Position numbers and translations under genes: made by a program
Shown: positions 15,215-44,362 of the stretch, piece by piece
Position numbering within the stretch: the first letter of the stretch is position 1
Layout: every line of letters begins with the position of its first letter
Assembly (NCBI GenBank): GCA_030280995.1
Contig: JASXTE010000001.1
Location: forward strand, 3,552,501 to 3,616,500
From: Hemileia vastatrix
Lineage: Eukaryota; Basidiomycota; Pucciniomycetes; Pucciniales; Zaghouaniaceae
Direction of reading: 5' to 3'
DNA length: 64,000 nt
The notes under the pieces: model-generated
What the model was told of the DNA's origin: nothing
Database searches by the model: none
The model's input: only the letters and a program-made list of their open reading frames with translations

Positions 15215-15217
15215 ATT

Positions 15218-15258
15218 CACCACAGAAAATTTGGGGGGGTATTGCTAGCAATACCCCT
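15218..15258 (+). repeat. Left terminal inverted repeat of the giant element
   Basis: Starts CACCACAGAAAATTT, then GGGGGGG and a 22-bp perfect palindrome whose half-site is GGGGTATTGCT (centre CTAG). It matches the reverse complement of 42144-42184 at 39 of 41 positions. Confidence 0.92.
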
Positions 15259-16112
15259 CATTTAAAAATGTTGGGAAGTGGTTTGAAAGCTGTTGGAAGG
15301 CTGTTGGGAGTTCATTGTGAAACCAGATTTAAATTAATTGGACAAAGATTTGGTAATCAGTTAGACCTAGGTTCAACCAAACTCAATCACAGGTTTCTTG
15401 GAGCTTGGTGATTACTTTGATTTTGAGCTGAGCACAGATTGAGCAAAGCTTGAACATATCACTTAACATATCATAATATTCACTTTCCCATCTTGTGGAA
15501 AGCAAAATTTGATATTCGTTCTAAGAATATCTACATATATTTTCTTGCCAAGTTGGTAACAGAAGGTTAAACTGTAGTATCTCAATTATTACACTAGACT
15601 ACATAGATATTTGATAAAACATACAATTCAAATCAATTTTAATATTATTGAGATCACCATAAGTGTCTTTCCAAAGACTTACAAAAAGTATGTTAGTATC
15701 AAGATATCGTTCTAGGTAGTAGTTTCAATTTGGATTTTGAACTGACATCTAAAGCATTTTACTATTAGACAGAAACATAAATAAGTGTAATAAGAGTGAA
15801 ATTATTCTATTTTGTGATTATAATGTAACAATAATGCACATTTTTATTGAGAAAATTTTTCTTCCTCCACAAACCAAAATTTACTCTATAGGCTCAAGAT
15901 TTATTTTTAAGACATATTATTCATTTCAGTTATCATTGATTTACTTCCAATATTTATTAAAAAGATAATAATAATACATGTGAAAGAATTATGAGCTTAG
16001 CATAGCATATGCTAAAAAGTTATTTTGTCGTTTTATTCAAAACTGATTCTTCATTTTTTGCTTCAATTCATCTTTTAACAACCACTATCTTCAGATACTA
16101 TTCTTACTTAAT
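15259..16112. other. Left subterminal region of the giant element
   Basis: No gene. The first 200 bp are richer in G and carry repeated TTGGGA/GCTGTTGG words, TGAGC words and CACAGATTGAGC shared with the right subterminal region. The remainder is AT-rich and must contain the promoter of the SNF2 gene. Confidence 0.5.
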
Positions 16113-18541
16113 ATGTCAAGTCTCAGATGTGTTGGACAGTTCTCAATAACAATCGATCAAATTTATATGAATGTAATTTCAAGATTTCAAAACTCACCGA
16201 CCCCCACAATTTTACAGCGAGGCCATTCGAATGTTCATATTTTTGGACTATTTGAAGAAAGAAAACCAACCCTTGTTGGTAATCTTTCTCAAGTGCAGAG
16301 TCAGCACATTGGACCACTATTGGGTGACATTGGCTCTGGATCTCACCATTTAAACCAAAGAAGTGCCTTGAATCCTATGAAGCCTTTCTATTTTCATGCT
16401 TACTTGGTTCCAGTTTTTGGTAATCAGTATCAACTTTGGGGATGCCTCTTTTCTTCAAGTACACTAATCAGTCTTGCTAAAGAAGCATTTTCTTCTGCAC
16501 AAATCGATTTATGTCCAATCCTGAACTACGACTCCACTATCTTTTTTAATATCCCGCATGTAATTTTTGAAGGCTCTTTCCAAATATCTCAGAGTACTCA
16601 AGATTGGAAAGCTGATCAACTTATCCGAGGAATCAAAACAGTTCTCAAAACACATCAACTTCAAGCAATAAATTTTATGATTGACAATGAACGAATGTTA
16701 AAGGAAAAGTTGGATATCATGTGGAGGCACCAGGACAACCATTGGCTTAGAACTGGATTCGATGACTATAAAGATCAGTTTCCTAACAATCAATTGCCGC
16801 CTGAAGGAAACGGGTCAATACTTGCTGATGATATGGGTTTGGGAAAGACACTTTCAACTCTTTCTCTTATAAGTGCAACTCAAGGTGAAGCAAGACAATT
16901 CCAGGTATCAGAAAATCAAGAAGGTATTAATCGGAGTTCAGCCACACTGATTATATGCCCCCTGGCAACACTATCGAATTGGATCAATGAAATAAGTGTG
17001 CACTTTGAAGATAATGCACTTCCTTTCAAGGTTCTTTATGGGAAGGATTGTCAAAATACTAATGTCAATGAGCTACAGGACACTGCTATTGTTTTAACGA
17101 CCTATGAAATAGCTAGCCCAACGATGTCAAAAAATCAAAGCCAAAAAAAGATACCGGTGACTCAAATGCTCTTTTGGTATAGAGTTGTTTTAGATGAAGC
17201 TCAGTTAGTGCCCATTTCTATATCTAAAACTTAAAACTTAATTTTTATTATCAATTTTTATAAATATTCTTTTAGTTACATTAAAAATCCTTACTCGCAG
17301 AGGGCTCAAACAATATTTGACTTGGAATCCCAACACCGACTATGCTTGACTGGAACTCCACTTCAGAACAGGCCCACTGACCTTCAAAGTCTCATATTTT
17401 TTCTTAGAATCGAAAAGTGGCAAGAAGACTGGTTATGGAAGAATTTCCTTTTTCCAGGTTTGCAAAAAGGAAAGGCTAATTCTATTAAATCAATCAATCA
17501 CTTAATGAAAGTCATAAGCCTACGTAGAACAAAGGATGCAATTTTGTCTCTTCCAAAAAAGATTCAAAGGGGGATATCGGTTCAATTAGCAGATCCATGG
17601 AGGTCTAAACTTGATGTGCTTCAAGAAGGATTCACTGAGCGATATGGGCCCTCCAGAAGCACTGACTTCCCTTGGGACTCATCTGAGTTTCTAAGAGAGC
17701 TGATGATTTTAAGAAAATTCTGCAACCATCCAATCTACGAAAATCTGGATGAAACTCCAACTTTTGATTTCACCTGGCAGCATTCCGCAAAGATTTGTCA
17801 TCTTATAGGCCACTTAAAAAACTTTTTGTCTGGTGAAAGGGATATAAATTTTCCAAAAGCTGTTATATTCTCCAACTTTGCAGACTTTTTGCAGATGTAA
17901 GTGATTCTATAATGAATTGTTTTACAAAATTGTGTTGGCTTATTAAAAACAATTTTCTAATATTTCAAAATAGAATAAAAATGGCTTTAGATGACCACAA
18001 TATTAGGTATACCCAGCTTACGGGTGAACTCAGCCGGACAAAGCGAGACAAAAATATGCATGAATTCCATTTTAATAAAAATTGCCAAGTTTTGGTTGGA
18101 ACGATTCAGGCTGCAGGAGTGGGTATAGATCTCAGGTGTGCTCAAAATGTATATATAATGGTGAGCTCAATGTCTTTTATTTCATATTAAGAACAAAAAT
18201 ATTAAATTTTTTATATGTTCAATGTTGAAATAGGAGCCAAATTGGAATCCAGCAGTTGAGCAACAGGCTGTTGATCGGCTGTATAGAATGGGGCAGCAAA
18301 ATGAAGTAAATGTTTTGAATTATTTTGTACAAGGAAGTATAGAATTCAGCATGTATAAGATTCAAAGGAAAAAAATGGAGCTAACAATGTAAGCCAAATT
18401 TCATTTCTATAAATTTTAATGATAATAGTAATCATTAAAATTATGTTTTTGTTTTCAAGGCTAAGTGTCCCAAACAGTGGAAATGAGGAGTATGAGTGTG
18501 CAAACCTATTATTAAGGGAGTTTGTCAATCACTCACATTAG
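16113..18541 (+). CDS. SNF2-family (Rad5/Rad16-like) ATPase carried by the transposon
   Basis: Five exons (16113-17203, 17276-17896, 17974-18160, 18234-18388, 18460-18541) join to 2136 bases, 711 aa, with all introns GT-AG and 72-77 bp long. Helicase motifs are complete: I SILADDMGLGKT (about residue 235), Ia LIICPLATLSNW, II DEAH (about 361), III LTGTPLQNR (about 388), SLRRTKD, a CNHP block, IV VIFSNF, V VLVGTIQAAGVGIDL (about 610) and VI QQAVDRLYRMGQQNEV (about 642). The pre-motif HQLQAINFMIDNE resembles the Rad5/Rad16/HLTF group, but no RING or HIRAN domain is seen. The family couples ATP hydrolysis to DNA translocation and nucleosome or protein displacement. It is the leftmost gene of the giant element and ends tail-to-tail with its minus-strand neighbour, overlapping by 17 bp. 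Its role in transposition is inferred. Confidence 0.9.
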
Positions 18542-19646
18542 AGGAACAAAGAATTTCAAGGAGAGCAGGTAAATTTATGGGATTTTGAGGATTTAAAAGT
18601 CTGAGTTGTTGAGGATTTAGAGATGCAAGATATAAGGGAGAATAACAGTCATTCGGCAAACCCCGGGGGACATGAGAAGGATTAAGGTTAGGGGATAATG
18701 TTGAAACCAAACTGATTCTTTTGTACAAGGCCAAGTCCTTTAGCACACTGCCAGAGTAGGTTGAATTATCTCGAATATCAAAGTGTTGTTGGTCAAGATA
18801 TTGTGCAACTTTAGAAAAATCTTCAGACCTCCATTGCATTAAGATACGTCTTAACGATCCATCATTATCAATTTCGGTGTCTGAACAACATTTGATGTTT
18901 GTGAAAAGGTTGTGATAAGTTTCACAATGTGGAAGTTGTTTAAGAAGTTTAGTTCGGTTAACTGAATTCTAAGAATCTTTGTTATTTGAAATAAAGGTCA
19001 TAAATAAAAACGGTTGAAAAAAAAGGGATTTTCATACTTTTTTTTTTATTCTATATTTATGCTTTCTCACTTTGATTATTTCTTGAGAGCTATGAGAATC
19101 CTTCCCAAGTCTTAATCTATCAGCATGACCTAAAAACCAACGGTGAAGAACTCCTATTTGATTTGAGAAGCTAATTTGAGTTGAGTCAATTGGATATGCA
19201 ATCAAATTATTGGTTTTTAAGGCATTGTCCCAGTGTTTAATGAGAATATTTGCCAAGACCTGGTTCCATTTGTCAAACCAATCTAGGTTCCAAGCGAAAG
19301 TTGATCCTGGGAAACCACACATGCGAAGGTGCTCAATAAAAGATTCACGGAAAATTGGTGGAAACTTTTCTGAAACCACTGAATTTGATTCTGGATGAGG
19401 TAGTTCAAAGGCAATGTTGCAAGAATTCATGTCGAATGATGAAAATCTGTCTAATTGCTCTTCAGTAGGGTTTTGTTTCCATCCATTTGATTCTGGTGAC
19501 ATATCCAAAAGTGAACGACAAAAATTGTGTATAGATCTACAAAAGTGAGAATTGAATGGAGGCAAAGTCTCATTAAAAATTCTATTAAGTGTTCTTGTGT
19601 TTGTGGGCAGGTTTCCATGAGGAAAGTAAGAGCTACTAGGGTTCAT
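18525..19646 (-). CDS. Transposon accessory protein 1, fungal family of unknown function
   Basis: Two exons (19038-19646 and 18525-18968) around a 69-bp intron with GTATGA donor give 350 aa from ATG 19646; an upstream exon is possible because the frame is open further. No enzyme motif is recognised. Visible blocks: SFIEHLRMCGFPGSTFAWNL, WNQVLANILIKHW, then a LLKQLPHCETYHNL and KCCSDTEID stretch, and a C-terminal RGLPNDCYSPLYLASLNPQQ. The same order of blocks occurs in the protein at 24527-26204 of this element, so the two are paralogues. It faces the transposase gene across a shared 1-kb upstream region and overlaps the end of the SNF2 gene. Similar multicopy proteins are, as far as I recall, common in basidiomycetes, but I cannot name the family. 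Confidence 0.75.
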
Positions 19647-20721: not shown

Positions 20722-23700
20722 ATGCCTCCATTTTTTCATGTATGTCAATGTCAAGATCTTGGATGTGTCAATAGAAAGTATCAAACTTCTTCTGGGTCCT
20801 TTGAAGTTGGTATGGCTTTCAAAAGCTCTAATTCTTATGCAAAACATAAAGAGGAAAGAAATAGGAAGGCCCAGATGGTTATTTCTTCCAACAATCCACT
20901 TAACATTGGAAGTTCCCGCTCCACAGAAACAGTAAGCTGTATATCTATAGTTCAATGTGAGAATTAAAGTCTTTATGATGTTTCAATGATTTATTACATA
21001 GGGGCAGTTGCTATTGGGGGCAGAAGTATCTTCAACAGTCTCTAGAAACTCAAATCTCGGGGAACGGTATAGCCAAATAATTATGTGGCAGGCAGCAAAG
21101 CTTTCTCTGATTCATCATTTGAGCAAAGAAGGTTGTACTCAATTTTTGGATGAAGAAATTAAGAAGCTCAAACTTCTAGGTGATAGTGGAATACTGGATT
21201 CTGATAGCATTGTCCGCCTGGTCCCACGCTCGATAGATACAGTTTTTAGTCGATTAAAGCTCAATCAATCATTTTTCACTAAAACATGCTGTCCTAAATG
21301 CTTTGCTCTTTATGAGTATAACTCTGAATCTCAACCATCTATACTATGTTGCAATCAACCGTTTCTTTCATCATCAAAGCGCTATTTAAAAATGTTTGGA
21401 GCAGGACAAATTGCAGTTAAATGTGATGAAAGGCTGTATTTGATGGAGGAACATCAAGAACATGTAAAATACTTATCTCTTAAAACATTTCATCACCATT
21501 CTTTTATCGACTGGCTTAAGGAAAAGATCAAACTGTTCAAATTTGAGCTTCTGATTGAGAAGAAAACCCCTGTGGCAGAACGTGTAGAGTGTGATTTGAT
21601 GAAGGATGTTTGTGATGGTTCAATTTGGAAAAACTTTCCCATAACCACTCCAGCTCTGGATAGCAATGATGATGAATATATGATAACTTCAGGCAACTTA
21701 ATGTTTACTTTATATGTCGGCTGGTTTAGGCCTGGTGGCAATAGGATTGGAGGTCATCAGAAGTCTGTAGGCAATATTATGATGGTGTGTATGAACCTAC
21801 CTCAAGAAGATAGATACAAAATGGAAAATCTTTTTTTGTATTCTATTATACCCGGACCAACAGAACCCACAAGTGAACAGCTTAATCACCTTCTAAAACC
21901 ACTGGTTAATGATCTACAAACTCTATGGGATGGTATATTGATTGAAAAGACACATCTTTATCCACGAGGCCGGAAATTAAGAGTTGCATTGTTCTCTTTG
22001 ATAGGTGACATTCCTGCAATACGAAAATTGGCTGGCTTTTCGAGTCACTCTGCAAAAATGTTCTGCTCTTTCTGTAATATCTCTAAAGATGAAATTAGTG
22101 AAAAGAATGTGGGAAATTTTTCATTACGGAATCATGAGGATCATATGTGCTGGGCAACAAAGTGGAAAAATTCTAAGTCACATTGGGAGCGTGTATCAAT
22201 TGTTCAAAATCATGGGGTACGATGGAGTGAGCTGAATAACCTTGAATATTGGCGTCCAACTGAATATTGCTCAATTGATGTTATGCATTCACATATGCTT
22301 GGCAACCTAAAAGATCACAGTCTAAGCTATTTTCAAATCCAAAATGCAGCAAAAGATCTAGAAAGAAAGCTGGAAAAGGATAAAAATTGGCATGTAAGAG
22401 AAGAAGATGATGATTTCTTTTCTGATACTTCACTGCACAAACATTCGAAAAAACGTAGAAGTAGCTTAAGCACCACGAATAATGATGATGATGATACAGG
22501 ACACACGAGACAGCACAAGCGGCAAAGACGTACGAGTTCAAGACAGTCATCAAGTCATCATGGACTAGATAATGAAGGATTGGGAACAAATCGATCAAGA
22601 AGCCAGAGTAGGTCATCCAGCTCCAAATTTATTCCTCCATATAGCGATGTGGCCTCAGTACAGTCTCAAAGCAGTGACAGTAGGAATTCATTGTATAACT
22701 TAAGGCAAAGAAGCATTAGCATATCACAGAGTGAAGGATCTCACTCATCAAATGAGACAGCTAGAGATGAAGAAAATAAAAGGAAAGGTAAGGAGAAAGA
22801 AAATGAAGGTAGTAGTAATCCACGAATCACAGCAGCAGAGCTACAGGTTGTATGGAAGATGATTGATCAAGTAAGAAGACCTTCCTGGCTAACACGAGTT
22901 CCAAAATCAGTAGGATCTAAAAAGGCAGGATCCCTCAAGGCAGCAGAATGGCACATGCTGTATACTCTCTACTTCCCTTTGTCACTTATACCCCTTTGGT
23001 TTGAAAAATTTAAAGAATCTGAATCTTCAGCTTCCTCAGCTGATAAACCAAGAGAATATTATCTTCTCAAGTCACTTGTAACATTATGCTCGATCACCAA
23101 TTTTTTGACATTAAAAAATATACAGACTAATGAGCTTAAAGATCTAGATCAATTTCTGTTAGAGTATCGTGAGTGCCTTGAAGAGGGTTGGAAGAATATT
23201 AATGCAAAGCCAAATCTGCATATCACTCAACATTATCCTGAAATGATAAAGCGTCTTGGTCCACCATCAGGTACAGCTACTTGGTCTGGAGAGCGGGTGA
23301 ATCATATATTATCTGAAATTCCAAACAATCACCATCCACGTATGTAATGTTTGTAAGAAATGATTTAAAAACTCAGCTGTGCTAATTTAATAATATTTAC
23401 CACAGGAGAGATACCGCTAACAATGCTCAAACATTGGTATCGGAAGTCTAGGGTATTAGATCTTGGTGAAGCTGAAGATAATGATCAATGTGAGACTAAA
23501 AAAATCCATATTGATCTCGATAAACAAAACAAATGGATCCATCTAAGTATGGCATTATTTACTAAATGGGTAAGGGCACGAATGGGAAAAGAAACTTCAA
23601 GACGGGCTTTGACACCATCGGAGAAAAGTGGGGATCGGGTAGTTGAAAATGTAGCAAGCATATTGATACATGGAAAGAGGTTTACTAGTTACCATCGACA

Positions 23701-24100
23701 CATTGCTAATTCAACAATTGAATTCTACTATGGAAAAGATAGCCAGTTTGGGCAAATTGATGATCTTTTCAGATCAAAGGAAGAGATTGATCAAATATAT
23801 TTAATAGTAAGTCCTTTCAAAGAGCTCCGTCCAGAAGAAACATCAAAGGATCCCTATGAGCTTTTCCCACAAGTGCATTGTCGGTTAGTAAGAGTAGCCA
23901 AAGCAACTCAAATTGTGATTAAGAAAGATGCAATAATTGGACATGCAGCTACTGTCGAGCACAAAAAAGGAATGTTTGGAATCAAAGACGAGGTTGTCAC
24001 TGCCATTGGACTGCAGACAGTAGTGAGTGAAAAAATTAATCAAATTTATTTTCTGTTGACTAACATCTTTGTGTTAATTTGGGATTCGGGAAATTTGTAG
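20722..24100 (+). CDS. Tnp2-family CACTA transposase
   Basis: Three exons (20722-20931, 21002-23339, 23406-24100) join to 3243 bases, 1080 aa, with GT-AG introns of 70 and 66 bp. The family excises and reinserts CACTA elements. Motifs in order: N-terminal CQCQDLGC; a zinc-type cluster CCPKCFALYEY...CC near residue 170; GNLMFTLYVGWFRPGGNRIG (about 300); IIPGPTEPTSEQLNHLL (about 355); LRVALFSLIGDIPAIRKLAG then MFCSFCNIS (about 425), the Tnp2 hallmark; and YCSIDVMHSHMLGNL (about 490). A low-complexity insert rich in acidic residues, Ser and Arg (about 530-675, including SRSQSRSSSS) looks disordered and may carry nuclear localisation signals. The RNase H-fold core resumes with AAEWHMLYTLYFPLSLIPLW and ends with GLQTVVSEKINQIYFLLTNI. 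No frameshift or stop, so it may be functional. This gene assigns the 27-kb element to CACTA/CMC. Confidence 0.9.
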
Positions 24101-24526
24101 GATTGGTGATATTTGTAAATGGTGAAAGAAATAATTCAATGCTCGATTAAAAAATGCAATGCATCCAACTTACCTTATCATAAACCAGTGAACAATTACT
24201 TTGGTTGCTTTTATTGCGAGAGAACCCATGCTTTCAATGAGTCATTTTTATCTTAAATGTAAGAATGAAAGAAATAAAATCATGATAATGAGAAATATGA
24301 TAAAATTTTTACTTAATGAATGATCTTCTTGCTCATTCATCTACTATAAATAGTTTGACCTTCCAACTTTAGCTGATAGCTATATATTATTCACTTTATT
24401 TTTCGACAAGAGAACATACACGTTTACAAGACTATATACATAGTATCTTTTTTTACTTTAGCTTTGATAGGTATAAATTTTAACAACTGATTATTTTTAT
24501 TTTATTTTATTTTATTACAGTTCATT
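24101..24526. other. Transposase 3' end to accessory gene 2 upstream region
   Basis: Noncoding, AT-rich. Just before the next ATG there is TTTTATTTTATTTTATTACAG, which could be the acceptor of an untranslated 5' intron or only a pyrimidine-rich leader. Confidence 0.4.
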
Positions 24527-26204
24527 ATGGATGATAATTTTGAAGGGATGTCTGTTGACCCAACCGATTCTGATTGTTTTCCGCCTCAACATACTAATAC
24601 TGGAAATACTCCTCCACCACCCTCTGCTGATCCACCTCCAGATGCATCTCAATCTGTACCACCTAATCCTAACCCACCACCTAATCCCAATCCAGGCCAA
24701 GAGTCTCATTCAGAACCGAGAAATTTTAATCCCAATCATCCTTCTGCTTCTGAAAGTGCTGATCAGCAAGCTGATCAGCTAGGAAGAGATTGGGCTAGTG
24801 AAGTATTGAGGGAATTTTTCGGAGACCAATCATCATCTGCTCAGCCTAACCAAGGAGCAAGCACAAGTGGAGCAGGTAAGTAAAATTTGTAGTGTATTCT
24901 TTTATTGAAAAATAACCAATTTAATTAACTTATTTGAATTGTTAGTGAATCCCTCAATCATTATGGGTATCAGTGATTACCACAGACTCAATTCAGCAGA
25001 GTCTCATGAGCGAGAACGGGGGTTAAGGGCTGTAAGAGGCTTAGTTAGAAGGAATGATGTTCCCAGGAGCTCGGACAGTCTAAATAGAAATATTTACCAC
25101 TTTCTGAAGTATTGTCTTGGGGGACCAACACAAATATCAAAATATCCTGCGAGCCCAACACCTTTGGAGATTGAAAATTGGAAAGATTGGAGCCAATTCA
25201 AACTAAAAACCATTCAAACTGTCCTAACCCAAGTCCAATCTTCTAACCGTGCCAATTCTGCAGCTGATCGACAATTTCTGATAACCAATTCTATAGCCTT
25301 CTTGCGATCCAAAATTCGACTACCCGAATTTTTTCCAGCACCTGAGCCTCGAGGACTAAAAGGAGGAGCACCGATCCCACTTTCTGTCAAAAGAAACTTA
25401 GAGCGTGAATTGCAAGAAAAAGGTTTTCGGAAATTCACGTTTGATTGGACTTGCCGTGATTTTTCAGAATCAACTTGGAATCAAGTCATGGGAAGCATAG
25501 TATGCGACCACTGTACCAGATGGCTCACCACCTTGAATACAATCGATCAGTCAAAGCTTCAGTTCACTCAATGTGTTATTGAGAAATGGGTAGTTAATAA
25601 GGGGAAGGAGATGATAAGGTTGTTTGGGCAAGAAGAGGAAAGGGTAGCAAGAGAAAAGATTGAAAAGAGGGCAAGGGCACAAGTAAAACGTTATCGGACC
25701 AAGGTAAGTTTTTAATTTTACTTTGCTTTTTGTTATTATGAAGCTGATTTAGTTGGAATTCAGATTGCTAGTGCACGCTACAAGTTAGCAAGAGATCTCT
25801 GCAGTGATGTGCCAGGTTTTGTTGTGCTTTTTCATGATACTAGGTGCATCTCTGATATCGAGGAAGGCCCAGCACCAGCCCCAACTGCACCTATCCGAGC
25901 TATTCCTGGATGGCGAAATCCTGAACTCAATGATTTGTTTAAAAAAATGGATAAGATGACAAAGGACTTAGCCCATACACCAGCTCAAAAAAAATCAACA
26001 TTAAAAACATATTCACGGTCATCAGAAAGGACAGTTGCACAAAATGGTATATTCAATGTTCCCAAATACCTCCCCAAGAATTGCTATTCAGCAACATTTT
26101 TGCAAGGATTATCTGTGAATGAACGTGAGTCACTTGGGGTTGGAGCTGATATTGATCTGGTAAAGATTCGGGAATCAATTAATAGAGCATCAACATCATC
26201 ATAA
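24527..26204 (+). CDS. Transposon accessory protein 2, paralogue of accessory protein 1
   Basis: Three exons (24527-24875, 24946-25703, 25764-26204) give 1548 bases, 515 aa, introns 70 and 60 bp. The first 115 residues are Pro/Asn/Ser-rich and probably disordered. The rest shares block order with the minus-strand protein at 18525-19646: NLERELQEKGFRKFTFDWTC, WNQVMGSIVCDHCTRWL, an IPGWRNPELNDLFKK block and C-terminal KYLPKNCYSATFLQGLS, followed by an acidic IDL. A basic ERVAREKIEKRARAQVKRYR stretch (about residues 350-370) could bind nucleic acid. CACTA elements commonly encode a second protein besides the transposase (TnpA in plants, which binds subterminal repeats). Whether these proteins do the same is inference. 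Confidence 0.8.
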
Positions 26205-26400
26205 CTTAGGTATAACGGTGATCTTCTGTGTAATATAGCTATCTTATATTGAATTTTATGTATTCTGTTTTTTTTCAAAGCAGCTTGGTAAATGTTATAA
26301 AGTGATATTGAGAGAGAGTAACATTTTATTTAAGAAAAACAAATAATGTATGAGATATAAAAATGTATTTTCAACAAATTGATGGTCCATACCTCTTTAT
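26205..26400. other. Spacer between accessory gene 2 and the palindrome satellite
   Basis: AT-rich 3' flank of accessory gene 2. No gene or repeat seen. Confidence 0.4.
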
Positions 26401-28380
26401 GTCACATTTATGTATCCATATTAATTTCAATCGAATTTAATGTTGACCAATACATAGTGAATACACGCTATGCCACTTATACTTGCCAGGCATTGCTACC
26501 ATTAAATATGCCAGTATCAAAAATTAATTTCGATCGAAATTAATGAGCATGATAATCATGAATTTCTGGAGTCAACTGCTTATTTTTATGCATGGTGCCT
26601 TGCCAACATTAATTTCGATCGAAATTACTTTTGATACTGGCATATTGCATGGTGTCTATTCCTGGAAAGTGTAAGTGGCATAGTGTGTATTCATTACATA
26701 TTGGTCAACATTAATTTCAATAGAATTTAATATTGACATTTTCATATTGAACCCAAACCAGCAAACGACCCAAAAAATTCTTCATAAAACTGCTCATTAA
26801 TTTCGATCGAAATTAGTGAGCACCATATACATATTGAATGGTAGTTATATCTGGTGTGTGTAAGTTGTAAAGCTTGTGTTCAATGTTTATTGGTCAACAT
26901 TAATTTTGATTGAAATTAATATTAATGTGTAAATGATATTTACATGCTCAATATGCATTGTAATGTGTTTACTTAACAATAGAGTGCCCTACTTTTCATC
27001 TTACATAAAAATGCTTGGTAGCATGTCAAATTCAATTTTTATTAAAATTAATGTTGACATGTTACCATGCATAACAGTAAGCAACTGACTGAATAAATTG
27101 ATGATAATCATGAACCTTAATTTCGATCGAAATTAATGTTGCCAAGTGCAGATTGAAAAAAAGCTATGCCACTTACACTAGCCAGGCATATTTACTATTT
27201 ATTATGTATTGGTCAACATTAATTTTTATAGAAATTAATATGGATATGTAAATTTTATATTTACCCTCAACATGTATAGTAAATTTCAATACTTAAAAAT
27301 ACTTGCCGTCCTTTACATGTCATGCAAAAAAGCATTATATCATTTCAACATTAATTTTGATCAAAATTAATGTTGGAATGCCATTATGCATTGAAACAAC
27401 TAACTGACTGAAAAAGTTCATGATCAAAATGCTCATTAATTTTGATCAAAATTAATGTTGACCAATAAACATTGAACACAAGCTTTACAACTTACACACA
27501 CCAGATATAACTACCATTCAATATGTATATGGTGCTCACTAATTTCGATCGAAATTAATGAGCAGTTTTATGAAGAATTTTTTGGGTCGTTTGCTGGTTT
27601 GGGTTCAATATGAAAATGTCAATATTAAATTCTATTGAAATTAATGTTGACCAATACATAATGAATACACACTATGCCACTTACACTTTCCAGGCATATA
27701 TACATGCAATATGCCAGTATCAAAAGTAATTTCGATCGAAATTAATGTTGGCAAGGCACCATGCATAAAAATAAGCAGTTGACTCCAGAAATTCATGATT
27801 ATCATGCTCATTAATTTCGATCGAAATTAATTTTTGATACTGGCATATTTAATGGTAGCTATGCCTGGAAAGTGTAAGTGGCATAGCATGTATTCATTAT
27901 GTATTAGTCAACATTAATTTCGATCGAAATTAATATGGACATGGACTATGCATAAAATTCCTATAAGTATAGGTAAGCTAAGCAGTTAGATAAACTGGTT
28001 TGATCAAGTACACCATATAAAAATTGATGTTTTAATGCCTTGGTTAATTTCGATCAAAATTAATATTAAGCCATGCATGTTGAATTTTATCTATGTCTGT
28101 GTAGTCCATGTGAAATGGCTTGTATTCAATATGCAGGGGTCTATATTAATTTTGATCGAAATTATGAGGTTCATTGCCTCATAAATTTGATGGTTTCTGT
28201 CAGTGTTTCATGCATGGTGCCATCTGATACTTGTTGATTCCTATCAAAATTAATTTCAACACCAATATATTGAATACAAACCATGGCACTTACAGTACTT
28301 GGTCATAGCTAAAATTCAATATGCTAGTCTCAAAATTAATTTCGATAGAAATTAATCAGGATCCATGAAGTTTATCAATA
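26401..28380. repeat. Palindromic CpG-containing satellite inside the giant element
   Basis: About twenty copies of a palindrome of the form ATTAATTT-CGATCG-AAATTAAT are spaced roughly 60-110 bp apart, embedded in longer recurring blocks (CACTTACACTTTCCAGGCAT, CAATATGCCAGTATCAAA, ACCATGCATAAAAATAAGCA). Eight keep the intact core TTTCGATCGAAA (starting at 26528, 26613, 26801, 27121, 27543, 27730, 27815, 27918). Most others differ by C-to-T or G-to-A at the two CpG sites (for example TTTTGATCAAAA near 27353 and 27440; TTTCGATCAAAA near 28047; TTTTGATCGAAA near 28149). No coding potential. Confidence 0.9.
26412..27940. repeat. Large inverted repeat within the satellite (arms about 500 bp)
   Basis: The left arm (about 26412-26920) is nearly the exact reverse complement of the right arm (about 27432-27940). 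Both contain, in mirrored order, the blocks GTTGACCAATACATA, GCCACTTACACTT, the CAACTGCTTATTTTTATGCA block and AACCCAAACCAGCAAACGAC. The spacer of about 510 bp has further copies of the palindromes. As single-stranded DNA or RNA the whole region could fold into a long hairpin. Confidence 0.85.
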
Positions 28381-29391: not shown

Positions 29392-31824
29392 ATGTCTAGT
29401 ATACAAAATCCTACACCTCCACTTTGTATGTATATCATGTTCCTCTCTCTTAATTTATATATTTCACTTATGTTCTATATCTTTTTTTTTTCAAAAATTT
29501 GATTTTCCAGCACCCAAATGTGTTTCATCCCACTCTCTGATTGATACTCGCTTTGAAGCTTTTGAGCTTGCACCATGTCTGCCACATGGCATGGCACCTA
29601 ACCCTCCTGTACTTAGCAATGAGAGGCAGGAAATAACGAGAGTTCAGTATCGCAATTTACTTGAATTGGCTAGAGATAAAACAGAAGAGCTTGTCAAGAT
29701 CCTTAACAATAATCCTTCTCCTTCATATTTATCTAACCCTTGTAATGAATTACTCCAATATGTGAAAAGCCTTGAAAAATGTATGTTCATCACCTTTTTT
29801 GTCTCCTTTTAAATTAGTAGATAAGATTATTAATATTTTTTTTTCTTCATATATATTTGTAGCTTATGAGGAGGGTATGATTCCTGCTGATGAAGTCATT
29901 GTCATTAGGGATGATGATGAGACAGATGAACCATCAGCTTCAACTCATGCTTCAACTTCTAAGGAAAATCTTGAAACACCTGTTATCCGCTCCAAGAAAA
30001 AGAGATTATCCCAAGGCTCCTCTTTTGTTCGACGTATTAAACCGGCTTCTGCTAATGAATTTTCTGATGTATCAAATAATAAATCTCAAAAAAAAAGCAA
30101 AGGTTTTGATAATGAGTATATTCTTGTTTCCTTTTTTTTTTATTGTTATTCTTTTATCTTTAAAATTCAATCATATATCTCTTTTATTGCTTACATATTG
30201 TACTTTTTATCTTTCTTTTGATATTTTGTACCAGAAACTCACCTGCTGTAGATTGTTCCATCCATAAACGCCCTCTCCCTGATGAAGATGATGAAAAGAG
30301 CAATGAAAATAGCGATGATCAACTATCAGAATATGAAGCTATGCTTGTTCATCAAAAAAAGCAAAGTTTAAAATCTTCTTCAAGACATGTTGATATGTTT
30401 GATAAAGATGATGATTCAAACAGCTCATCACCGAATTCCTTCATTTCTAAGAAGCAATACCCATCACCTCCTAAATTACCTACTTTGACCTCTTTGAAAG
30501 CTTCTCTACCAATGAAATCAACTCCAATCAAGATATCAAAAAAACCTCTAACTTATTCACCCTCAGTTCTAAAAGAATCTGATTTGCAGGAGGAATTCTG
30601 TAAAATTCATAATTTTTATAAAGGTAGAATCAGCACGGCAAAGGTCCTAAGGTCGTGGTTGGAAATTGTTACTCTCCTCGAATTACGCTCTTCTACTTAT
30701 TCCCAAGAACCCATGTCAAATATTCCAATGTTTACTTTTCATTGGGAAAAATCTTGTGGAGAAGATTGGCTTTCAAAACTTACTGAGTTATGTAAGTTAC
30801 CATAATTTTTAGTCTTGACTTTTGTTCTTTTACTTATTTTTTTTTTCCTTTTGTAGCAAATATTTTTTTAGAGATTGATAGCTCACAGCTATGGGTACTT
30901 GATAATATTGATTTCAAAAAAATGGAAGATTTATGTGATCCTGATGGTTTAAATACTGAAATTCTTTCCTCAACAAAGAAAACGGATCACCCTGAATCCA
31001 ATCTTATCCGAATGCTCATGAGATTAATGATCCCAAGTGACCACTGCCGTTCTTCATGGGTATCTCTTATATCATCTTCACTTTATCTGACCGCACATGA
31101 ATTCAGCCAGCTTCCATCACATCAAAACATTAACTCAGATTGTCCAATTGAACGTGGTCTTCAGCTTCTAGCTCACCTTTCAAATCTGAAGAGTCCGATT
31201 TCTGATGGCTTAGAAGTTGGTCCCACTGCACTTCAAACCCGTGATATATCAATGTCAACTCTTCTTCAAATCAGCAATATTATCATTGATATAATTATGT
31301 CAATTATCATTCTTAAATCAAAATATTGTGCTGCAACAATATCAAGTGGCAAGACTAGTGAAGCTCAACAATCAAGTGAGAAAAACGAAAATACTGAACT
31401 GACTATAAGGAGAGAGAAACAAAAGGCTGCACTAAACAAAATAAATTCTGAATACTCCCACCACCGATATCAATCTTTCACATTCTATATAATTGATGGT
31501 GTCCGTGGTTTATTTCTGAGCTCTCAAGATCATAGATTGGCTTCAGCAGCTGATTGCTTGGAGGTAATATCAGAAGTTAAGTTTCTTAATTTACATGAAA
31601 AAAAAAATCATTTGATGGAAGAAATAATTTGGAAAAATTTAAATAACTATATTTTAACATTAATAAAACCTTTTATAGGCAAGTGTGATCCATTTCCTTT
31701 AAAATTTGATACCCCAAGTCCTCCGGGAATTGCTAGGGCTATTTCTGCAGATTTTCTTAATCACTGGAGCTCCATTCAGCCAGTATCACCTTTTTTTGCT
31801 AAACATAGCCTTTCAATAAATTAA
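29392..31824 (+). CDS. Unrecognised 693-aa protein of the giant transposon
   Basis: Five exons (29392-29425, 29511-29780, 29863-30115, 30235-30791, 30857-31824) join in frame to 2082 bases, with GT-AG introns of 85, 82, 119 and 65 bp. I do not recognise a domain. Residues about 1-100 are moderately conserved-looking (FEAFELAPCLPHGMAPNPPV, then a RNLLELARDKTEELVKILNN helix). About 100-270 is acidic, Ser- and Lys-rich and likely disordered, with basic clusters RSKKKR and QKKSKG that could be nuclear signals. The C-terminal half looks globular, with hydrophobic helices (LLQISNIIIDIIMSIIIL) and a YIIDGVRGLFLSSQDHRLAS block. The helix could be a membrane segment but more likely belongs to a folded core. 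It lies between the palindrome satellite and the Tet-like gene and is convergent with the latter. DNA binding or a partner role is only a guess. Confidence 0.75.
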
Positions 31825-32623: not shown

Positions 32624-33834
32624 TTATATATCTAGATTTTTTAGATTTGTCTTAAAATTAGATAAATAATACTTTGCTGATTCTATTTCTTCCTCTATTA
32701 AGTCATCTCTTTTCAAAAAAACTCTCAAAGCACTAATCAAATATTCTAACCTAAATTTTTCTGTTTTAATTTCTAAGTATTCTGAAATATCAATATCAAA
32801 AACATTAAGCTTTTCTATAGCATGAAAAAGTCTAGTGCTGATTTGAATAGAAGAACCTATCCTAGTGAAGCCAGGAATTTCATGACATCTTGAGGTAAAA
32901 TGCCTTAGTTGATTGGCAGGCCATAATGTCACTGTTATTCCATTAGTTGCTTCAAAGTTGATTTTACTTCGAATTTCGGGAAACATAAGTTCTCCACCTA
33001 TTTGTTGTGGTTGGGTCTTATCATACTTCATATGAATGGTGTTTTTTTCTGTATCTTTAGGAAAAAATATTCCTAAAGTATACTCACTTGCATCCTTATC
33101 GAGATGAACCTCATTAGAGAACCCATTACCATTCCCTCCAGATGTCCAAGTTAAATTACTAGCAAACGGTACACCGTCTTCTTCACTAGAAACTTTTGAA
33201 AATCCAGGAATACCAAGTTTTGCGCAAAGATTAGTTGCCTCATTGTACTTTACATATGATATTTTTTTAAAAAAATATTCAAAGTACATTGCAATCCTCT
33301 TCATTCGTTTTTTATATTCATCCGTTTTTACAATATCATCAGTGTATTCATCTGCAAGGAAAAGCATTCAAAAATTCAGTATTTAAATTAAAAAAAGTGA
33401 TACTTACGAATATGTAAAGATTTCTTTCTATCTAAAATAAAGCCACCACCAAACATTTTTCCAAAACCACCAGCTCTTTGATGATAACCATTATTTTTAA
33501 TTTCATGTTCGCAGTAAGAAAGATCCTTAATGAATCGCACCGTAGCTTCTAACATATCTAGTTCTTTGAGCTCATGAATTTCAAAAGTCTGCACAAGAAC
33601 ATTAGGTATTAAGACACCTTTTGGTTTATAAATACTACATCCAGGAAAAAAATTGTAATAATTATTGCAATCTGTCATATTATTTGCATAAGATCGTGCA
33701 TAGAAATGTGGCTTCTTCCCGTTTGTATCCATTCCAAGAGCGTTTACAAGTTTCATTCCAGTAGCAATGTCTTTCGCCCACCTATTGTTAGAGTTCTTCC
33801 CTGGCCGTTTTTTTTTTTTCAAATCGTTACTCAT
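32624..33834 (-). CDS. Tet-like 2OG-Fe(II) dioxygenase carried by the transposon
   Basis: Two exons (33408-33834 and 32624-33351) around a 56-bp intron with GTAAGT donor join to 384 aa. ATG 33834 is the first in frame; an acceptor-like CTCTTAG just upstream suggests a possible further exon. The protein has the signature of the fungal Tet-like oxygenase family: FASNLTWTSGG, then NEVHLDKDASEYTLGIFF with the iron-binding His-x-Asp (about residues 224-226), IGGELMFPE, a distal His in NQLRHFTSR (about 291) and RIGSSIQIS (about 304), whose Arg would bind 2-oxoglutarate. All expected cofactor ligands appear present. TET/JBP enzymes oxidise methylated pyrimidines in DNA; related fungal genes are known to travel with KDZ transposons. 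Here it sits in a CACTA element, opposite in direction to its neighbour. Activity on 5-methylcytosine is inferred from the family. Confidence 0.87.
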
Positions 33835-35580: not shown

Positions 35581-36303
35581 GCAGCCAGATTTATACTGGC
35601 TGCTTTTTAGAAACCTTAATTTATGACCCAAGCCTTTGAAATTGGCTTGGGTCCCTTACATTGCAATTTAGTACTTCCAGCCAGGTTTCCCCTGGCTGGA
35701 AGTGTCTCTTTCAAGCAATCGAAGTCGCTAAAAGCGACTTCGATTGCTTGCTGTAATGTTTGCCACCCTCCCAGCTAATTTACTAGGCTGGGAGGTGGCC
35801 AAAGCAGTGTGCAACGCGCGTTGCTGCTGCAAGTAACGCGCGTTGCACAATCGCTACCATATTTCATGCAGCTGATATCAAGTCAGCTGCATGAGATATG
35901 CGCAGCATGTGCAATGCGCGCTGCATGCAGCAGAAACGCGCGTTGCATGCAATGCGCATTACTTGCAGCAGCAATGCGTGTTGCATGTGCTGCATGCAGT
36001 GCATTGCACAGCCAGTTTTTTTCTGGCTGTGCAATGCACACAGAGAAACCAAAGTCCCTGCAAGGGACTTTGGTCTCTAAAATGGAAGCGACTTTCCCTA
36101 CCAGGTGCAATCTGGTGGGAAAGTGAGAGAAACGTTAGACCGAAGTTGTTTGAAAGCAACTTCGGTCTTAAAAACATTAAAAATCATAAAAAAAAAAATG
36201 AGAAATGTAGAAAAAAAAAAAAATTAAAAATTAAAATGTGAGTAAAAGAAAAAAAATAAGTTCTAGTGATACCAAAAATCCAAGCCAATTTCATTTGGCT
36301 TGG
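35581..36303. repeat. Tandem array of about thirteen different hairpins
   Basis: A GC-rich island in AT-rich DNA consists of back-to-back inverted repeats of unrelated sequence. Examples with their stem lengths: 35581-35603 (8 bp), 35625-35653 (10), 35673-35703 (13), 35712-35750 (18 bp, loop AAA, perfect), 35762-35799 (12, one bulge), 35809-35848 (14), 35865-35893 (11), a complex CG-rich set at about 35900-35998, 35999-36039 (17, perfect), 36042-36078 (16, two-base bulge), 36091-36124 (13, one bulge), 36137-36168 (12) and 36280-36303 (9). The outer stems (CCAAGCC...GGCTTGG at 35625 and 36280) are related, so the array is bracketed by similar hairpins. No coding meaning is likely. Confidence 0.9.
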
Positions 36304-38457
36304 TTATTTAATAATTAATTTTTAATACATTAAATTTAAAATTCAAACACCATAAAATATATGAATTTTTTTTATATGAATATTATAAATTTAATCTACC
36401 TCTTTCTCATAATTATATTTATAATTTTGTTTTTTTAATTTTTGACATTTAAGTTTATTTTTTGGAAATACAAAATTAAATTTTCAGCTAAATTTTTTAG
36501 TAAGGTAAAATAAATTATAAATTTGACATTTTGTAATTGAATAATGAAAAAAATTTTAAATTTATTTAAAAAATATTTTTGTTAGAAGAATACAAATATT
36601 TTAAGGGTAGAAATATGGTGCAAATTGTAAGTAAAAAAAATTATATTTTTTTTTGTGAGGGGTTATTTCTATTTTTAAAAATATTTTTCAAAAACATTCA
36701 TTAAATACTGAATTAAATTACTTTGAAACTCAAATTTTTTGTAAAATAATTAAAAATGAAATAATAATATTGTTGTATTTGATATAAAATTTGAATTGGT
36801 AATATTAATGTCTCTTTAAGTAAATTTGAAAATCATTTAAAAAGACCATGTTGATAAGTACTTCATTTTTGATATACAATGGTTATATATATATCTTATA
36901 TATATTTCTTGAGTGTTATTTTTATATACATTCAATAAAATTTGTAATATAAAATGCCATTTAATAATTAATTAATGTTCAACTTAGTTATAACAACTTC
37001 ATATTTAATACCAGCCACTAGTATTTACTTTTTAATTTAAAACTCCAATATAATATGAGAGTATCCTTATTTTGTCTGTATGTAATGAACAACAATAACA
37101 GACCATAAATGAGTGGGTAGTTAATTACAATAAGTAGTTGAAGAATAACCTATAAGAAATGATAAGTTTATCAAAAAGAGTACATTAAAAAAATATACTT
37201 TTGAATTTTTTTTGATATAATTTGGGTAGTTAAATGAAAATTTAAATTATCAGACATCAAAATGGATAAAATCTAAAAGTAGTGTTTATATAATAAGCCT
37301 CATAAAAAAAAAGGATAAAAAATCTACTATGTAACTAAATTATTAAATATTAAGGTATTATTAAAATTATTGAAAAACTTATTTTACAGTTATAATGAAA
37401 TCTAAATGTGAAAATAATGGTGGGATAATAGTAAGACTATGTGGAAACACTTTAATTTATACATACTTTCAACTATGTTCAGATAAAAAAATTGTTAAAA
37501 TTGTATAATAACATCTATTTAATAGTGATGCAATTTTATTTAGATCAAGAATAAATTTTTCTGAGGAAAAACTAATTAAATTGAGATATGGCCATCTCCT
37601 TTCAAGAGATAGAATAATAATAAAAATTTAAAAAATTATAATAAGTATTCTTAATCACCATTTTTGAAAAGTCTCTAGTAAAATTCATTATAATATATCA
37701 TTCATTGATTACATTATATGGAGTTTCATCTTGAAGTAGTGATGTGCAGCTTTGAACTTATGTTATGAAAAACAAAAAAGTTAAAAAATATATAGTTATA
37801 CTAATGAAAAAGCCAAAAATAAAAATACTATTATAAATTAAAAAAATAAAATTACATAAATTTTATTCTGCTCTAATGATGGAAGGGTACTATGTATGAA
37901 TTTCCACATGTTAAATCCAAACCTGCTTTAAGGCTAGTTTACAGGTAGAGCTATTAAGTTTCCTTAAATTCTAAAAATAACTTATGCATTTTACTAATTA
38001 TTTTTTTCTTGTTTCTTTCCAAAGTTGTTAGAGTTGCTTAATTAATACTGTTATCTTGATTGTAAGATATATAATTTTTTTTGAATACATGATTTATTGT
38101 TTCAAAAATTATATTATAAATTTAAATCATTTATTTCATTTTCTAAAGCTTCATTGTCAAAGACACAACTCCATTTTCTATTACTTAACAAATATATAAA
38201 ATGTGATAGTAAAATTTAAGGAATTTTCTTTTTTAGAGGGTCAAACTATATTGTGAAGATTTTTATCTAGAAATTCTTGTACTCTAAAACCAAATAATTT
38301 TCTCCCTTAAGTAAGCCATTTCAAAAATATGAGAATATAAACAAGAATATTAACTTATCTTATTTTTATTTTCTTTACTGAAAGTTTTAGTTCAATCCCT
38401 TTTTTTATATGACATTAGTATAAAAACATGGTTAAATGCTACTATATAATTAATTTT

Positions 38458-38500
<43 letters not shown>

Positions 38501-40208
38501 TTAGAACGTCATCCTTTTTTATTTACTTGAATAAATGGCTCAATTATAATACCCAACACTTATTAATGTTTCCCAAACTCAATAACAAATTTCTCATATG
38601 AAATATTAGCTTCTAATATAAGAAGTTTATCTATAGATGATATTCAACATGTGATTTTACTTTTTAGATTCAGCTAAAATTAAACAAAAGGAGAAATCAT
38701 GCATATGTGTATAAATGGTAACCATATGTTACTTAGAGGATTGTGAAATTCACTCATCAGAATGGTTTAAGTATTAAAATAAATTGAGGTCATTATTTTC
38801 TAGTATTTGAAACTAATTAGGAAATTATTCTAAAAATATATTTTAATGTGTATCATGTTTAAAAAGTTGGAAATATGATTTTTGAAAATTGTGAGTTTCT
38901 TATGAGATACCAAGCTTTAGTTTACATTGTTTCAAGTAGAATAGAATTTTAGTATTAGAAATTGAAAGCAATGTACCATTATCAGATTTTAACTGTGTTC
39001 TACTTATAGAATGATTACATAACATTAAACATTATTTAAATCAAAAAGGTTTAAAAGATATTTAGAGTTTTACCAAATTTCACCATTTATTAATCTTTGA
39101 TTTGAAAACAAACTATGATGTACACTCACTAGAAATAAGCAATCCCAATTTTAACATAATTTATCAATCCAAAAATAATGAGTCAATTAACATGAAAATA
39201 TATATTATTTCAAAACCAATTCTCTAGATTTAAAATATGATGCTTTAATGAAAAATTATTACAAAACTTTAATGCAATGAAGTCTCTTAAAAAATTCAAA
39301 AATAGAATATCAAAACAAGTAATTTCTGCAAAAAAAACTACTAACTATTGTAGATAAAGCATAAAAATAAGTCATATTTTTTAAAAAAATGATCTAACAA
39401 TATTTATTTTTGTTAAAAAAATCAAAACATTGTTAAGTTTGCTTGTTATAATAATGTTAAAATCCACTAAACATTATCTAAAGGTGGTAAAATATGTTAA
39501 AAATAAGTTGAATTTTATGAGATAAAAATCAACAATTTTGTATCATTTCCTGTTGTGCTATGACTTTATTCCACCCTTTTTATCTGATTCTTCCAGTATT
39601 ACTTTGCTATGATCACTAGTTTTCAAGTTAAAATTTACAAATGTTCATTATACTTGATAATATGAAAAATAACTCAAACTTTTATAACTACAAAATAAGA
39701 TTTTGTAACTCCTTCTTTCAATCAATATTTGAAGAAATTTTAGTTTATTTGAGTAATGATTTTAAGAATAACAAAAAAATTGAAATTCACAAGGAATTAT
39801 TTCCAGAGACTATAATTATTTACTTGTGTAATGCATGAGCTACTTATCAATGATGTAAAACATCAGAAAAGTAAGTTATAGTTATAAATCTACAGATTAT
39901 ACTGTTTCTGGTATATATATCTTCAATAAATCTTTTAAACTTATCTTAGCCTACATACCACACAATAGAAAATCATTATATTAAAAAAGGAAAAAATTCT
40001 ATGATAATATCATAAAGAATGATAACCATGGATTAATATTCCATAAAAATGGTTAATAATATTTTAAGAGAACCTAAATCAGTATTCTTTCATCAAAATA
40101 TATCCTTTTTGTCTTTGTAATTTATTCCAAACAAATTTTTTGAAAGTTGAATCTATATATCTAATGCCAAAACCACTATTAAGTTCCCTCTTAGACTTTT
40201 TAAGAAAT

Positions 40209-40239
<31 letters not shown>

Positions 40240-42143
40240 TATTTATCAAAAATTGAAATAAAGAATAAAAACATAATTTTATTTACCTTTAATTATTTAA
40301 ATATAGAGTATTTTCAGAATGCATTGTGGTTACTTGTGAAGGTTAGAAGATTTGAAGTTGGATTTATGAGTTTTTAGAAGGGCAAATATTGTAAAATTCT
40401 TTCATAAATATTTATTTCATAGTTTCAAATGTTGAAATCTACAAACTAATGGGATTTAAAATTATATTGAGATTTAAAATCTGTTTTCTACTCAAGTAAA
40501 ATAAAATAAAATGATGATATCAAAATTGAAATTAAGTTTAAACTTTTGATATGCTCTATCTTCAATTTTATTGATAGTGCATCAAAAATTTAATAATATT
40601 TTTTTCCTTCATCACTTTTTACATAAAAGATAGTTTTATCATTTTATGAATTAAAGATTGCTTATATAAATTTAACATCTATGTCAACTGTTTATGACTA
40701 TTAATCTATATAATAAATTTTTTAGAAGAAAAAATAACATCAGTATATACTGACTTTGAAATTATTCAATTTAAAATAGTTTACAGGTAGATAATGAAGG
40801 GTGATTTCATTTTTGAATATGAACTATAGAAGTCTTATTTTATCAATTTTAATTCTTTTTGAGCTCAAATGTATCCACCGCAACTTAAGTAAGAATAAAA
40901 ATTATTTTTATTGAAATTTACATGAGAAAGTATGCCTATTATTCAAAATCAAACTTGCTCTAATGGTGTTTTTCAATCATTATTTCCATTCATAACAATA
41001 AAAAACATTTCAATTTGCTGATGTTTTAGTTTTTGATATCCCCAAGTTTATATCTCAGGTGTACTATTCACAAAATTATTAAAAATATAATTTTCGAAAT
41101 ACATGATAAACTTGAAAGTGAGGGGGCATTAAATTTTTAAAAATGAATTCTAAATTCAGGATGGATAGTATTTTTTCTATTTTCACAAATGAACAATTTT
41201 TCGTTTCAATTAATCCAGAAAGAAAATTTTGTTGTAAGCATATTATATTATATTTATTATGATTTTAAATACTATATTTTCAAGATTTGTGTTTAATATT
41301 TCCTGTGAAAGTTAATGTTAATGTGAATTTAAAGTAAGCTTGAAGAAATTTAATCAATAGGCATATTGGATATTTAAAATAATATTTTGCTCCAATCTTG
41401 AATCATCCTGGGCTAAAAAATATCCCAAATAAGGTTTTTGTGGGTCAATTTGGATTTAAGTAGGATTAAGTGAGGTTTAATAAAGGACAGATAAAAGGCT
41501 AAATTCATTACTAGTGACTTTTTTCTCAAAATAGTTATAAAATATTTATCATTCTGGACTCAAGCTTCAATAAAGTTGAATTGAAACAGAGATAATTTCT
41601 AGCAGCACAACACCATATTTACAAAGGTGTAAAATACCTCAAATATTACTCATAATATAGGAAGGCAAGGAATCTACAAAATTCACATTTCAAACGAGGA
41701 TTTATATTTTGAATTTGAAATTGAGAAATGGAATATTATTTTCCAATTTAAATATCTATTAGTCATTTTAACAAAAGTTTTCAGTAATCAGATTGAATTT
41801 TGATGGTATTTTGTTGTAGATTAATCATTTTGATGAGACATTTACTCAAAATTACTGGTTTCGTTTCTAATATTCCATGTGAAATTCATTATGAATCTTT
41901 TTGAAAGTGAATAGTTGACATATTGGATATGCAAAAGCTTATGTTAGATCAAAGTGAGATCAAAGGGAGCTTAACTGATGATCAAATTAGGATTTTACAA
42001 GATCAAACGGTGATCAATGTAGGTTCATCTTGAGCTCAATCTGTGACAAATCTCTGACTAAATGTAAGGCCAAACAATTTCCTACATGGTGATGATGTGT
42101 GCATAATTCAAGCATAGATTTGTGGCTCAACGGGGCTCAAGCA
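36304..42143. other. AT-rich, gene-free right part of the giant element
   Basis: Nearly 6 kb of about 80% AT with no frame above 65 codons and no recognisable domain. It contains TA microsatellites (38460-38493 and 40209-40240). Near the right end the words GATCAAA and TGAGATC recur (41950-42020), probably subterminal repeats. A diverged related stretch is seen around 41400-41500. Confidence 0.6.
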
Positions 42144-42184
42144 AGGGGTATTGCTAGCAATACCCCCCCATTTTTTCTGTGGTG
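42144..42184 (-). repeat. Right terminal inverted repeat of the giant element
   Basis: Read on the minus strand it starts CACCACAGAAAAAAT, followed by seven G and the same 22-bp palindrome. Next to both ends, a subterminal word CACAGATTGAGC recurs (left 15433-15444; right on the minus strand near 42035-42046), as expected for CACTA subterminal transposase-binding repeats. Confidence 0.92.
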
Positions 42185-44357: not shown

Positions 44358-44362
44358 ATGCC

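What the first reader, a model, noticed from the sequence alone, without database searches (positions are those of the whole stretch)
15218..42184. A 27-kb CACTA-like transposon with base-exact limits
Seen directly: 41-bp terminal inverted repeats with two mismatches, an ATT duplication, and exact in-frame rejoining of the interrupted Harbinger transposase (LNDIIVLN) when the element and one ATT are removed. A Tnp2 transposase lies inside. Typical CACTA elements are a few to about 20 kb, and six intact genes plus nearly identical ends point to recent activity. The gene set is unusual for the superfamily.
Basis: partly seen in the sequence, partly recalled or inferred. Interest (0 to 1): 0.95.

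Follow-up and report, generated by a model that had tools for sequence, protein, structure and literature searches.

The report
Thousand-copy giant transposon carrying a demethylase-like gene
A 27,000-letter jumping gene with six genes, one of them related to enzymes that remove DNA silencing marks, sits here with exact ends and has recently multiplied to about a thousand copies in this large fungal genome.

Summary
15218-42184 is one 26,967-bp insertion: 39/41 terminal repeats, ATT duplicated, and 19 of 19 fetched paralogous Harbinger sites empty with a single ATT at the same base. The whole genome (747.6 Mb) holds 1,042 left and 994 right ends; 70 of 100 listed left ends have a right end within 60 kb, 45 of them at 26.8-27.6 kb. 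It is an EnSpm/CACTA-like element (Tnp2, CACCA..TGGTG, 3-bp duplication) carrying a TET-like dioxygenase, a Rad5-like SNF2 ATPase, two diverged paralogues (B, D), an orphan (E) and an 18-site palindrome array. Short TET and SNF2 stretches occur 1,036 and 1,133 times. TET-bearing EnSpm elements of rusts were published in 2025 (PMC12730594); the SNF2 partner, the array and the ~1,000-copy burst appear new. This copy lacks the first catalytic residue of the transposase; four other places share its stretch there, which suggests movement in trans. Copies show CpG C-to-T decay, so the TET-like gene does not fully shield them. The anti-silencing function is inferred, not shown.

The parts
15215..15217 (.). 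Target-site duplication ATT, left copy
   Evidence: single ATT at 19 of 19 fetched paralogous empty sites
15218..15258 (+). Left terminal inverted repeat, 41 bp, with a perfect 22-bp palindrome at 15236-15257
   Evidence: 1,042 left ends in the genome
16113..18541 (+). Gene A: SNF2 ATPase nearest RAD5 among solved structures, no RING or HIRAN hit in Pfam, 5 exons, 711 aa
   Evidence: 40-base stretch 1,133 times in the genome
18525..19646 (-). Gene B: unknown protein, 2 exons, 350 aa, diverged paralogue of D
20722..24109 (+). Gene C: Tnp2/EnSpm-type transposase, 4 exons, 1,057 aa; first catalytic acidic residue missing in this copy
24527..26204 (+). Gene D: unknown protein, 3 exons, 515 aa, paralogue of B
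26421..28355 (.). Array of 18 palindromic sites (TTAATTTCGATCGAAATTAA, up to 3 mismatches), partly an inverted duplication 26415-26920 / 27435-27939 (490 of 506 columns)
   Evidence: 17, 19 and 18 sites in 3 of 3 other copies fetched
29392..31824 (+). Gene E: unknown protein, 5 exons, 693 aa, no Pfam hit above cut-off
32624..33834 (-). Gene F: TET-like 2OG-Fe(II) dioxygenase (PF20515), 2 exons, 384 aa; H225-x-D227 and H293 present
   Evidence: 42-base stretch 1,036 times in the genome
42144..42184 (-). Right terminal inverted repeat with the same 22-bp palindrome at 42145-42166
   Evidence: 994 right ends in the genome
42185..42187 (.). Target-site duplication ATT, right copy
   Evidence: ATT beyond the right end in 12 of 12 paired copies

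Best explanation
A giant, high-copy, TET-bearing EnSpm/CACTA-like DNA transposon of a large-genome (probably rust) fungus. It moves by a Tnp2-type transposase acting on CACCA..TGGTG ends that each hold a 22-bp palindrome, duplicating 3 bp (shown: ends, duplication, empty sites, copies; inferred: transposase action). Copies whose own transposase has lost a catalytic residue, such as this one, are moved in trans by others (inferred). The most likely role of the other genes is anti-silencing: the TET-like enzyme oxidises 5-methylcytosine on the element, the Rad5-like SNF2 ATPase remodels its chromatin, and an element-coded DNA-binding protein (B, D or E) aims them at the palindrome array and perhaps the end palindromes (all inferred). 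This does not protect completely: inserted copies still decay by CpG C-to-T change (shown).
For: Single insertion and exact ends. Copies: 1,042 left and 994 right ends, reversed-pattern control 0; of 20 left ends followed up (of 39 others scored), 12 had the right end in the 7 kb looked at, 26,789-29,748 bp away, with ATT beyond it in 12 of 12; 70 of 100 listed left ends pair, 61 of them at 26-31 kb against 0.23 expected. Genes travel with the ends: TET stretch 1,036, SNF2 stretch 1,133. TET: PF20515 E 5.9e-24 over profile 8-208 of 211. SNF2: PF00176 E 1.2e-57 and Helicase_C E 2.6e-17, RAD5 the best solved relative, E 6.6e-48; Walker-A, DEAH and C-terminal motifs present. Array: 18 sites in 2 kb, none elsewhere in the window, 0.01 by chance; kept in 3 of 3 other copies while its sequence varies (94.0, 97.7, 99.9% identity), as VANC target arrays do (PMC5735166, passages). 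Rusts methylate young TEs at CG (PMC8444563, PMC12774611, passages). In trans: 5 places on 5 contigs, this one included, share this copy's 40-base stretch around the lost residue.
Against: No expression, methylation or enzyme data. Copies carry C-to-T singletons at CpG (21 for 88 sites) far more than at other C (23 for 1,649 sites; p 4e-17), so any protection is partial. Between copies the TET, transposase and SNF2 stretches change at about the neutral ratio (TET singletons 21 replacement or stop: 5 silent for 919: 230 sites), so no ongoing selection is visible; 2 of 8 TET copies have a stop and 4 of 8 have gaps in the coding sequence. DNA binding by B, D or E is not shown; models had pLDDT 37 and 43.
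Confidence: 0.5

Rival explanations
1. The element is a real high-copy EnSpm, but TET, SNF2, B, D and E are passengers with no role in its spread; abundance came from an efficient transposase and a permissive genome.
For: Near-neutral replacement-to-silent ratio between copies, stops and gaps in TET copies; CpG decay of copies.
Against: The copies sampled are too young for selection on single copies to show. TET and SNF2 stretches are as frequent as the ends, and short derivatives with both ends are rare among the listed exact ends: for 1 of 70 paired left ends the nearest right end is under 15 kb (5.0 kb); 30 of 100 stayed unpaired. TET genes were captured repeatedly by rust transposons (PMC12730594).
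Confidence: 0.35
2. The ends belong to two separate insertions, or the 27 kb is an assembly join.
For: Large base-composition shift inside the element (about 33% to about 22% G+C near 32 kb).
Against: Base-exact paralogous empty sites, 19 of 19; 12 of 20 followed copies with both ends at nearly the same distance and ATT beyond the right end.
Confidence: 0.01
3. It belongs to Plavaka or KDZ rather than EnSpm.
For: The transposase pattern recalls Plavaka (recall); PMC12730594 reports that TET-bearing EnSpm transposases of P. striiformis resemble Plavaka.
Against: Termini CACCA..TGGTG with 3 bp duplicated fit CAC..GTG EnSpm; PlavakaB has CATCA..TGATG, PlavakaA TGT..ACA, KDZ 7-8 bp duplications (PMC12730594).
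Confidence: 0.12
4. The palindrome array is a nested satellite or foldback insertion unrelated to the element's function.
For: 97% inverted duplication of 506 columns; 13 of 17 spacings are 85-86 or 101-103 bp.
Against: Present in 3 of 3 other copies fetched with 17-19 sites; no flanking duplication noticed by eye.
Confidence: 0.3

Closest known systems
TET+ EnSpm of Pucciniales (Kojima 2025, PMC12730594; main text parts 1-5 of 7 read, supplement not available)
   Same: CAC..GTG termini, 3-bp duplication, Plavaka/EnSpm-like transposase, TET/JBP gene on board, host genomes with several TET+ lineages
   Different: The main text holds no 'SNF2' (term count 0), and in the parts read I saw no cis array and no copy numbers; sizes are in a table I could not see
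Large CACTA elements: soybean 20.5 kb (PMC2613891, search listing only); Chondrus En/Spm 16-20 kb with 4-5 ORFs (PMC6431247, one passage)
   Same: Enlarged Tnp2-type elements
   Different: 27 kb, six genes, TET and SNF2, about a thousand copies
VANDAL/VANC anti-silencing elements of Arabidopsis (PMC5735166, passages)
   Same: Dense family-specific motif array in non-coding DNA that changes fast; what it may work like
   Different: A MuDR family (so called in PMC12730594), with a known binding protein and no TET gene mentioned in the passages seen; here the binding protein is not identified and the sites are palindromes
AG-type TET + Kyakuja of Coprinopsis (46 genes; quoted in PMC12730594)
   Same: TET genes multiplied with a transposon
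   Different: Other transposon, other TET type, far fewer genes

Membership tests
CACTA/EnSpm | 3-bp target-site duplication | tested here: met
CACTA/EnSpm | Termini CAC..GTG (fungal EnSpm in PMC12730594); strict CACTA | tested here: inconclusive
   CACCA..TGGTG: CAC..GTG met, strict CACTA not met
CACTA/EnSpm | Tnp2 (Transposase_21, PF02992) transposase | tested here: met
   E 4.6e-14
CACTA/EnSpm | D-D-E triad with C(2)C and H(3-4)H | tested here: inconclusive
   In this copy the first acidic residue is missing; 8 of 8 other copies have it. Second D (GDIPA), CSFC and AEWH present. Positions assigned from recalled motifs; H(3-4)H not settled.
CACTA/EnSpm | Many subterminal repeats | tested here: inconclusive
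   Exact 9-mers in about 840 bp inside each end: a few shared, the longest run about 12 bp and inverted, no dense array; the repeat array lies in the middle
Plavaka A/B | TGT..ACA or CATCA..TGATG termini | tested here: not met
   against PMC12730594
TET/JBP dioxygenase, PU type | Tet-like 2OG-Fe(II) domain with HxD..H | tested here: met
   PF20515 E 5.9e-24; H225, D227, H293, aligned with the relic at 2265-2684. PU type by inference only
TET/JBP dioxygenase | 5mC oxidation | not testable with these tools
   -
SNF2, Rad5/HLTF clade | Two-lobed SNF2 core nearest RAD5 | tested here: met
   nearest solved structure only, no tree
SNF2, Rad5/HLTF clade | RING and HIRAN domains | tested here: not met
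   No hit in the spliced protein up to E 1, so only 'Rad5-like core' is claimed

The most novel reading that the evidence does not exclude
A self-contained anti-silencing transposon: B/D/E proteins read an array of palindromes whose intact core holds TCG on both strands, and bring a TET-like dioxygenase and a Rad5-like SNF2 ATPase to the element, so that it counters the host's own CG methylation (in basidiomycetes kept in part by DNMT5, itself a fusion with an SNF2 domain related to fungal Rad8; PMC13297926, passages). This let a 27-kb DNA transposon reach about a thousand copies, giving one genome about a thousand TET-like genes.
Probability: 0.25. Interest if true: 0.92.

Novelty: new variant of a known kind. 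Interest (0 to 1): 0.77.

Why it matters
Giant DNA transposons with several genes are usually few in a genome (recall); here about a thousand copies would make up some 3.8% of it (1,042 x 27 kb of 747.6 Mb, an estimate that takes every left end as full length). It gives a natural experiment on whether transposon-borne TET genes counter methylation: a thousand near-identical copies, in a host group where CG methylation marks young TEs, with CpG decay already measurable. It also pairs TET with an SNF2 motor, a pairing otherwise recalled from kinetoplastid JBP2.

Tried and rejected
Two-element and assembly-join readings: rejected. TIR identity as a clock: rejected in principle. TCG content of the element as evidence of protection: the element's excess (209 TCG against 301 other NCG) came from coding sequence and the array; non-coding element TCG 39 of 1,248 against VCG 91 of 2,108 gives no sign of protection. 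B-D homology held against shuffles (194 against at most 75 in 100); D-E is borderline (77 against at most 74 in 60) and B-E nothing (53 against at most 80 in 60). Structure models of the TET core (pLDDT 37) and the D/B core (pLDDT 43) were useless, so no fold search was made. The solved-structure search found no TET relative of the TET core. Viral contigs and prokaryote contigs gave no relatives. No Rfam family at gathering score and no tRNA in the window. In print: searches listed no SNF2-bearing CACTA and no thousand-copy TET element; the library lacks most subscription papers, and the Kojima supplement could not be opened.
Full report
What is there. The 41-bp inverted repeats at 15218-15258 and 42144-42184 differ at two adjacent positions; ATT stands on both sides. 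About 1e-10 such pairs are expected in the window from base frequencies. Each repeat holds a perfect 22-bp palindrome, found nowhere else in the window. The flanks are two parts of one Harbinger transposase gene: profile positions 23-85 on the left, 99-202 on the right, with an intron-like frame change on the right and an in-frame stop at 15029 on the left. A genome search with the right flank scored 40 of 66 candidates; 20 loci were fetched, one of them the window; the other 19 of 19 run through with a single ATT at the same base.

Copies. The window lies in an unnamed 747.6-Mb genome of 791 contigs. The left end (46 bases, at most 2 mismatches) occurs 547+495 = 1,042 times, the right end 468+526 = 994 times; the reversed-pattern control is 0 for both. 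The tool lists only the first 100 places, all exact matches. Of the 100 left ends listed, 70 have a listed right end in the proper orientation 15-60 kb away: 45 at 26.8-27.6 kb, 16 at 28.1-30.7 kb, 9 longer; 30 have none. I entered 92 of the 100 listed right ends; the other 8 lie beyond the last left end listed. 0.23 pairs at 26-31 kb are expected by chance. For 1 of the 70 a nearer right end lies at 5.0 kb, and one right end serves two left ends. In a separate check, 20 of the 39 other left ends scored were followed: 12 had the right end in the 7 kb looked at, with ATT beyond it in 12 of 12; 8 had none there. The left ends were found with ATT in the query, so ATT on the left is no independent evidence; on the right it is. 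One locus (L008) has another triplet on the left, and one (L007) sits inside another copy of the family (seen).

Genes. Spliced models with GT-AG introns of 56-119 bp and no internal stop: A (711 aa), B (350), C (1,057), D (515), E (693), F (384). A is an SNF2 ATPase nearest RAD5 among solved structures, without RING or HIRAN hit. C is a Tnp2 transposase. F is a TET-like 2OG-Fe(II) oxygenase with HxD and the distal His. B and D are paralogues (raw score 194 against at most 75 in 100 shuffles). E is an orphan. A 40-base SNF2 stretch occurs 582+551 = 1,133 times and a 42-base TET stretch 542+494 = 1,036 times at up to 2 mismatches, control 0. So these two cargo genes go with the ends nearly one to one; B, C, D, E were not counted.

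This copy's transposase. At the first catalytic position (assigned from recalled Tnp2/Plavaka motifs) 8 of 8 other copies have the acidic residue and this one does not. The exact 40-base stretch of this copy occurs at 5 places on 5 contigs, this one included. If these are separate insertions, copies with a probably dead transposase have been moved in trans; their flanks were not checked.

Age and decay. Identity to this copy is 98.6-99.96% in four regions; for the left region 6 of 7 other loci were used, L005 being left out because it departs from the element near the end of that region. 157 singletons fall into 52 C>A, 44 C>T, 32 A>T, 21 A>G, 4 A>C, 4 C>G. C>T falls 21 times on 88 CpG sites and 23 times on 1,649 other C sites (p 4e-17), TCG most (13 for 36 sites; against other CpG p 0.04); sites were counted in this copy. 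This fits the TCG hypermutation reported for Pucciniomycotina (quoted in PMC12730594) and shows that copies with a TET gene on board still decay that way. Replacement and silent singletons stand near the neutral ratio in the TET gene and in parts of the transposase and SNF2 genes, as expected of copies that drift after insertion; of 8 TET copies 2 have a stop, 4 have gaps, 3 have neither.

The array. 18 sites of a 20-bp palindrome between D and E, none elsewhere in the window, 0.01 expected; 8 of the 18 have the intact 12-base core, which holds TCG on both strands; 13 of 17 spacings are 85-86 or 101-103 bp, and part of it is a 97% inverted duplication. Three of 3 other copies fetched keep 17, 19 and 18 sites, while the region is 97.7, 94.0 and 99.9% identical. 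This resembles the fast-changing VANC target arrays (PMC5735166, passages). It is the best candidate for an element-specific address; no binding protein is shown.

What it works like and what it is. As a family it is an EnSpm of the TET+ kind that Kojima described in Puccinia striiformis (CAC..GTG, 3 bp, PMC12730594). What is added here is the SNF2 gene, the B/D pair, E, the array, and above all about a thousand copies, most of the paired ones near 27 kb. Anti-silencing by TET with SNF2 is the best-supported function by analogy and gene content; passenger genes are the main rival.

Noticed in passing
757-4471: A second, decayed TET-bearing element: 33-nt inverted ends (97%), TA on both sides, Harbinger-like ORF at 1065-1541 (by eye; no Pfam hit above cut-off) and TET relic pieces 2514-2684 and 2265-2447 (-) each matching PF20515 below its cut-off (E 3.5e-5 and 2.6e-4) with a stop between. 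Fits the published PHISTA kind.
   Followed up: partly
loci L001-L044, four aligned regions: C>A is the commonest singleton (52 of 157), 36 of 52 before A; unexplained, perhaps a mutational habit of this genome.
   Followed up: partly
L011, L021 and pairs: A length class at 28.5-28.7 kb (10 of 70 pairs), so perhaps a subfamily with about 1.6 kb extra; content not read.
   Followed up: no
L007 (G000:C103:20333814-20336899): A copy inserted in another copy of the same family at ATT (seen).
   Followed up: no
35810-35985: G+C-rich short inverted units (such as TGCAACGCGCGTTGC) in the AT-rich right part of the element; maybe a nested small element.
   Followed up: no
44362-53044: Reverse transcriptase and RNase H pieces and a pair of 300-nt direct repeats 95% alike at 44362 and 51183: retroelement remains.
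   Followed up: no
8229-10948 (-): Possible host gene with a weak Nup88 match (E 0.019, below cut-off).
   Followed up: no
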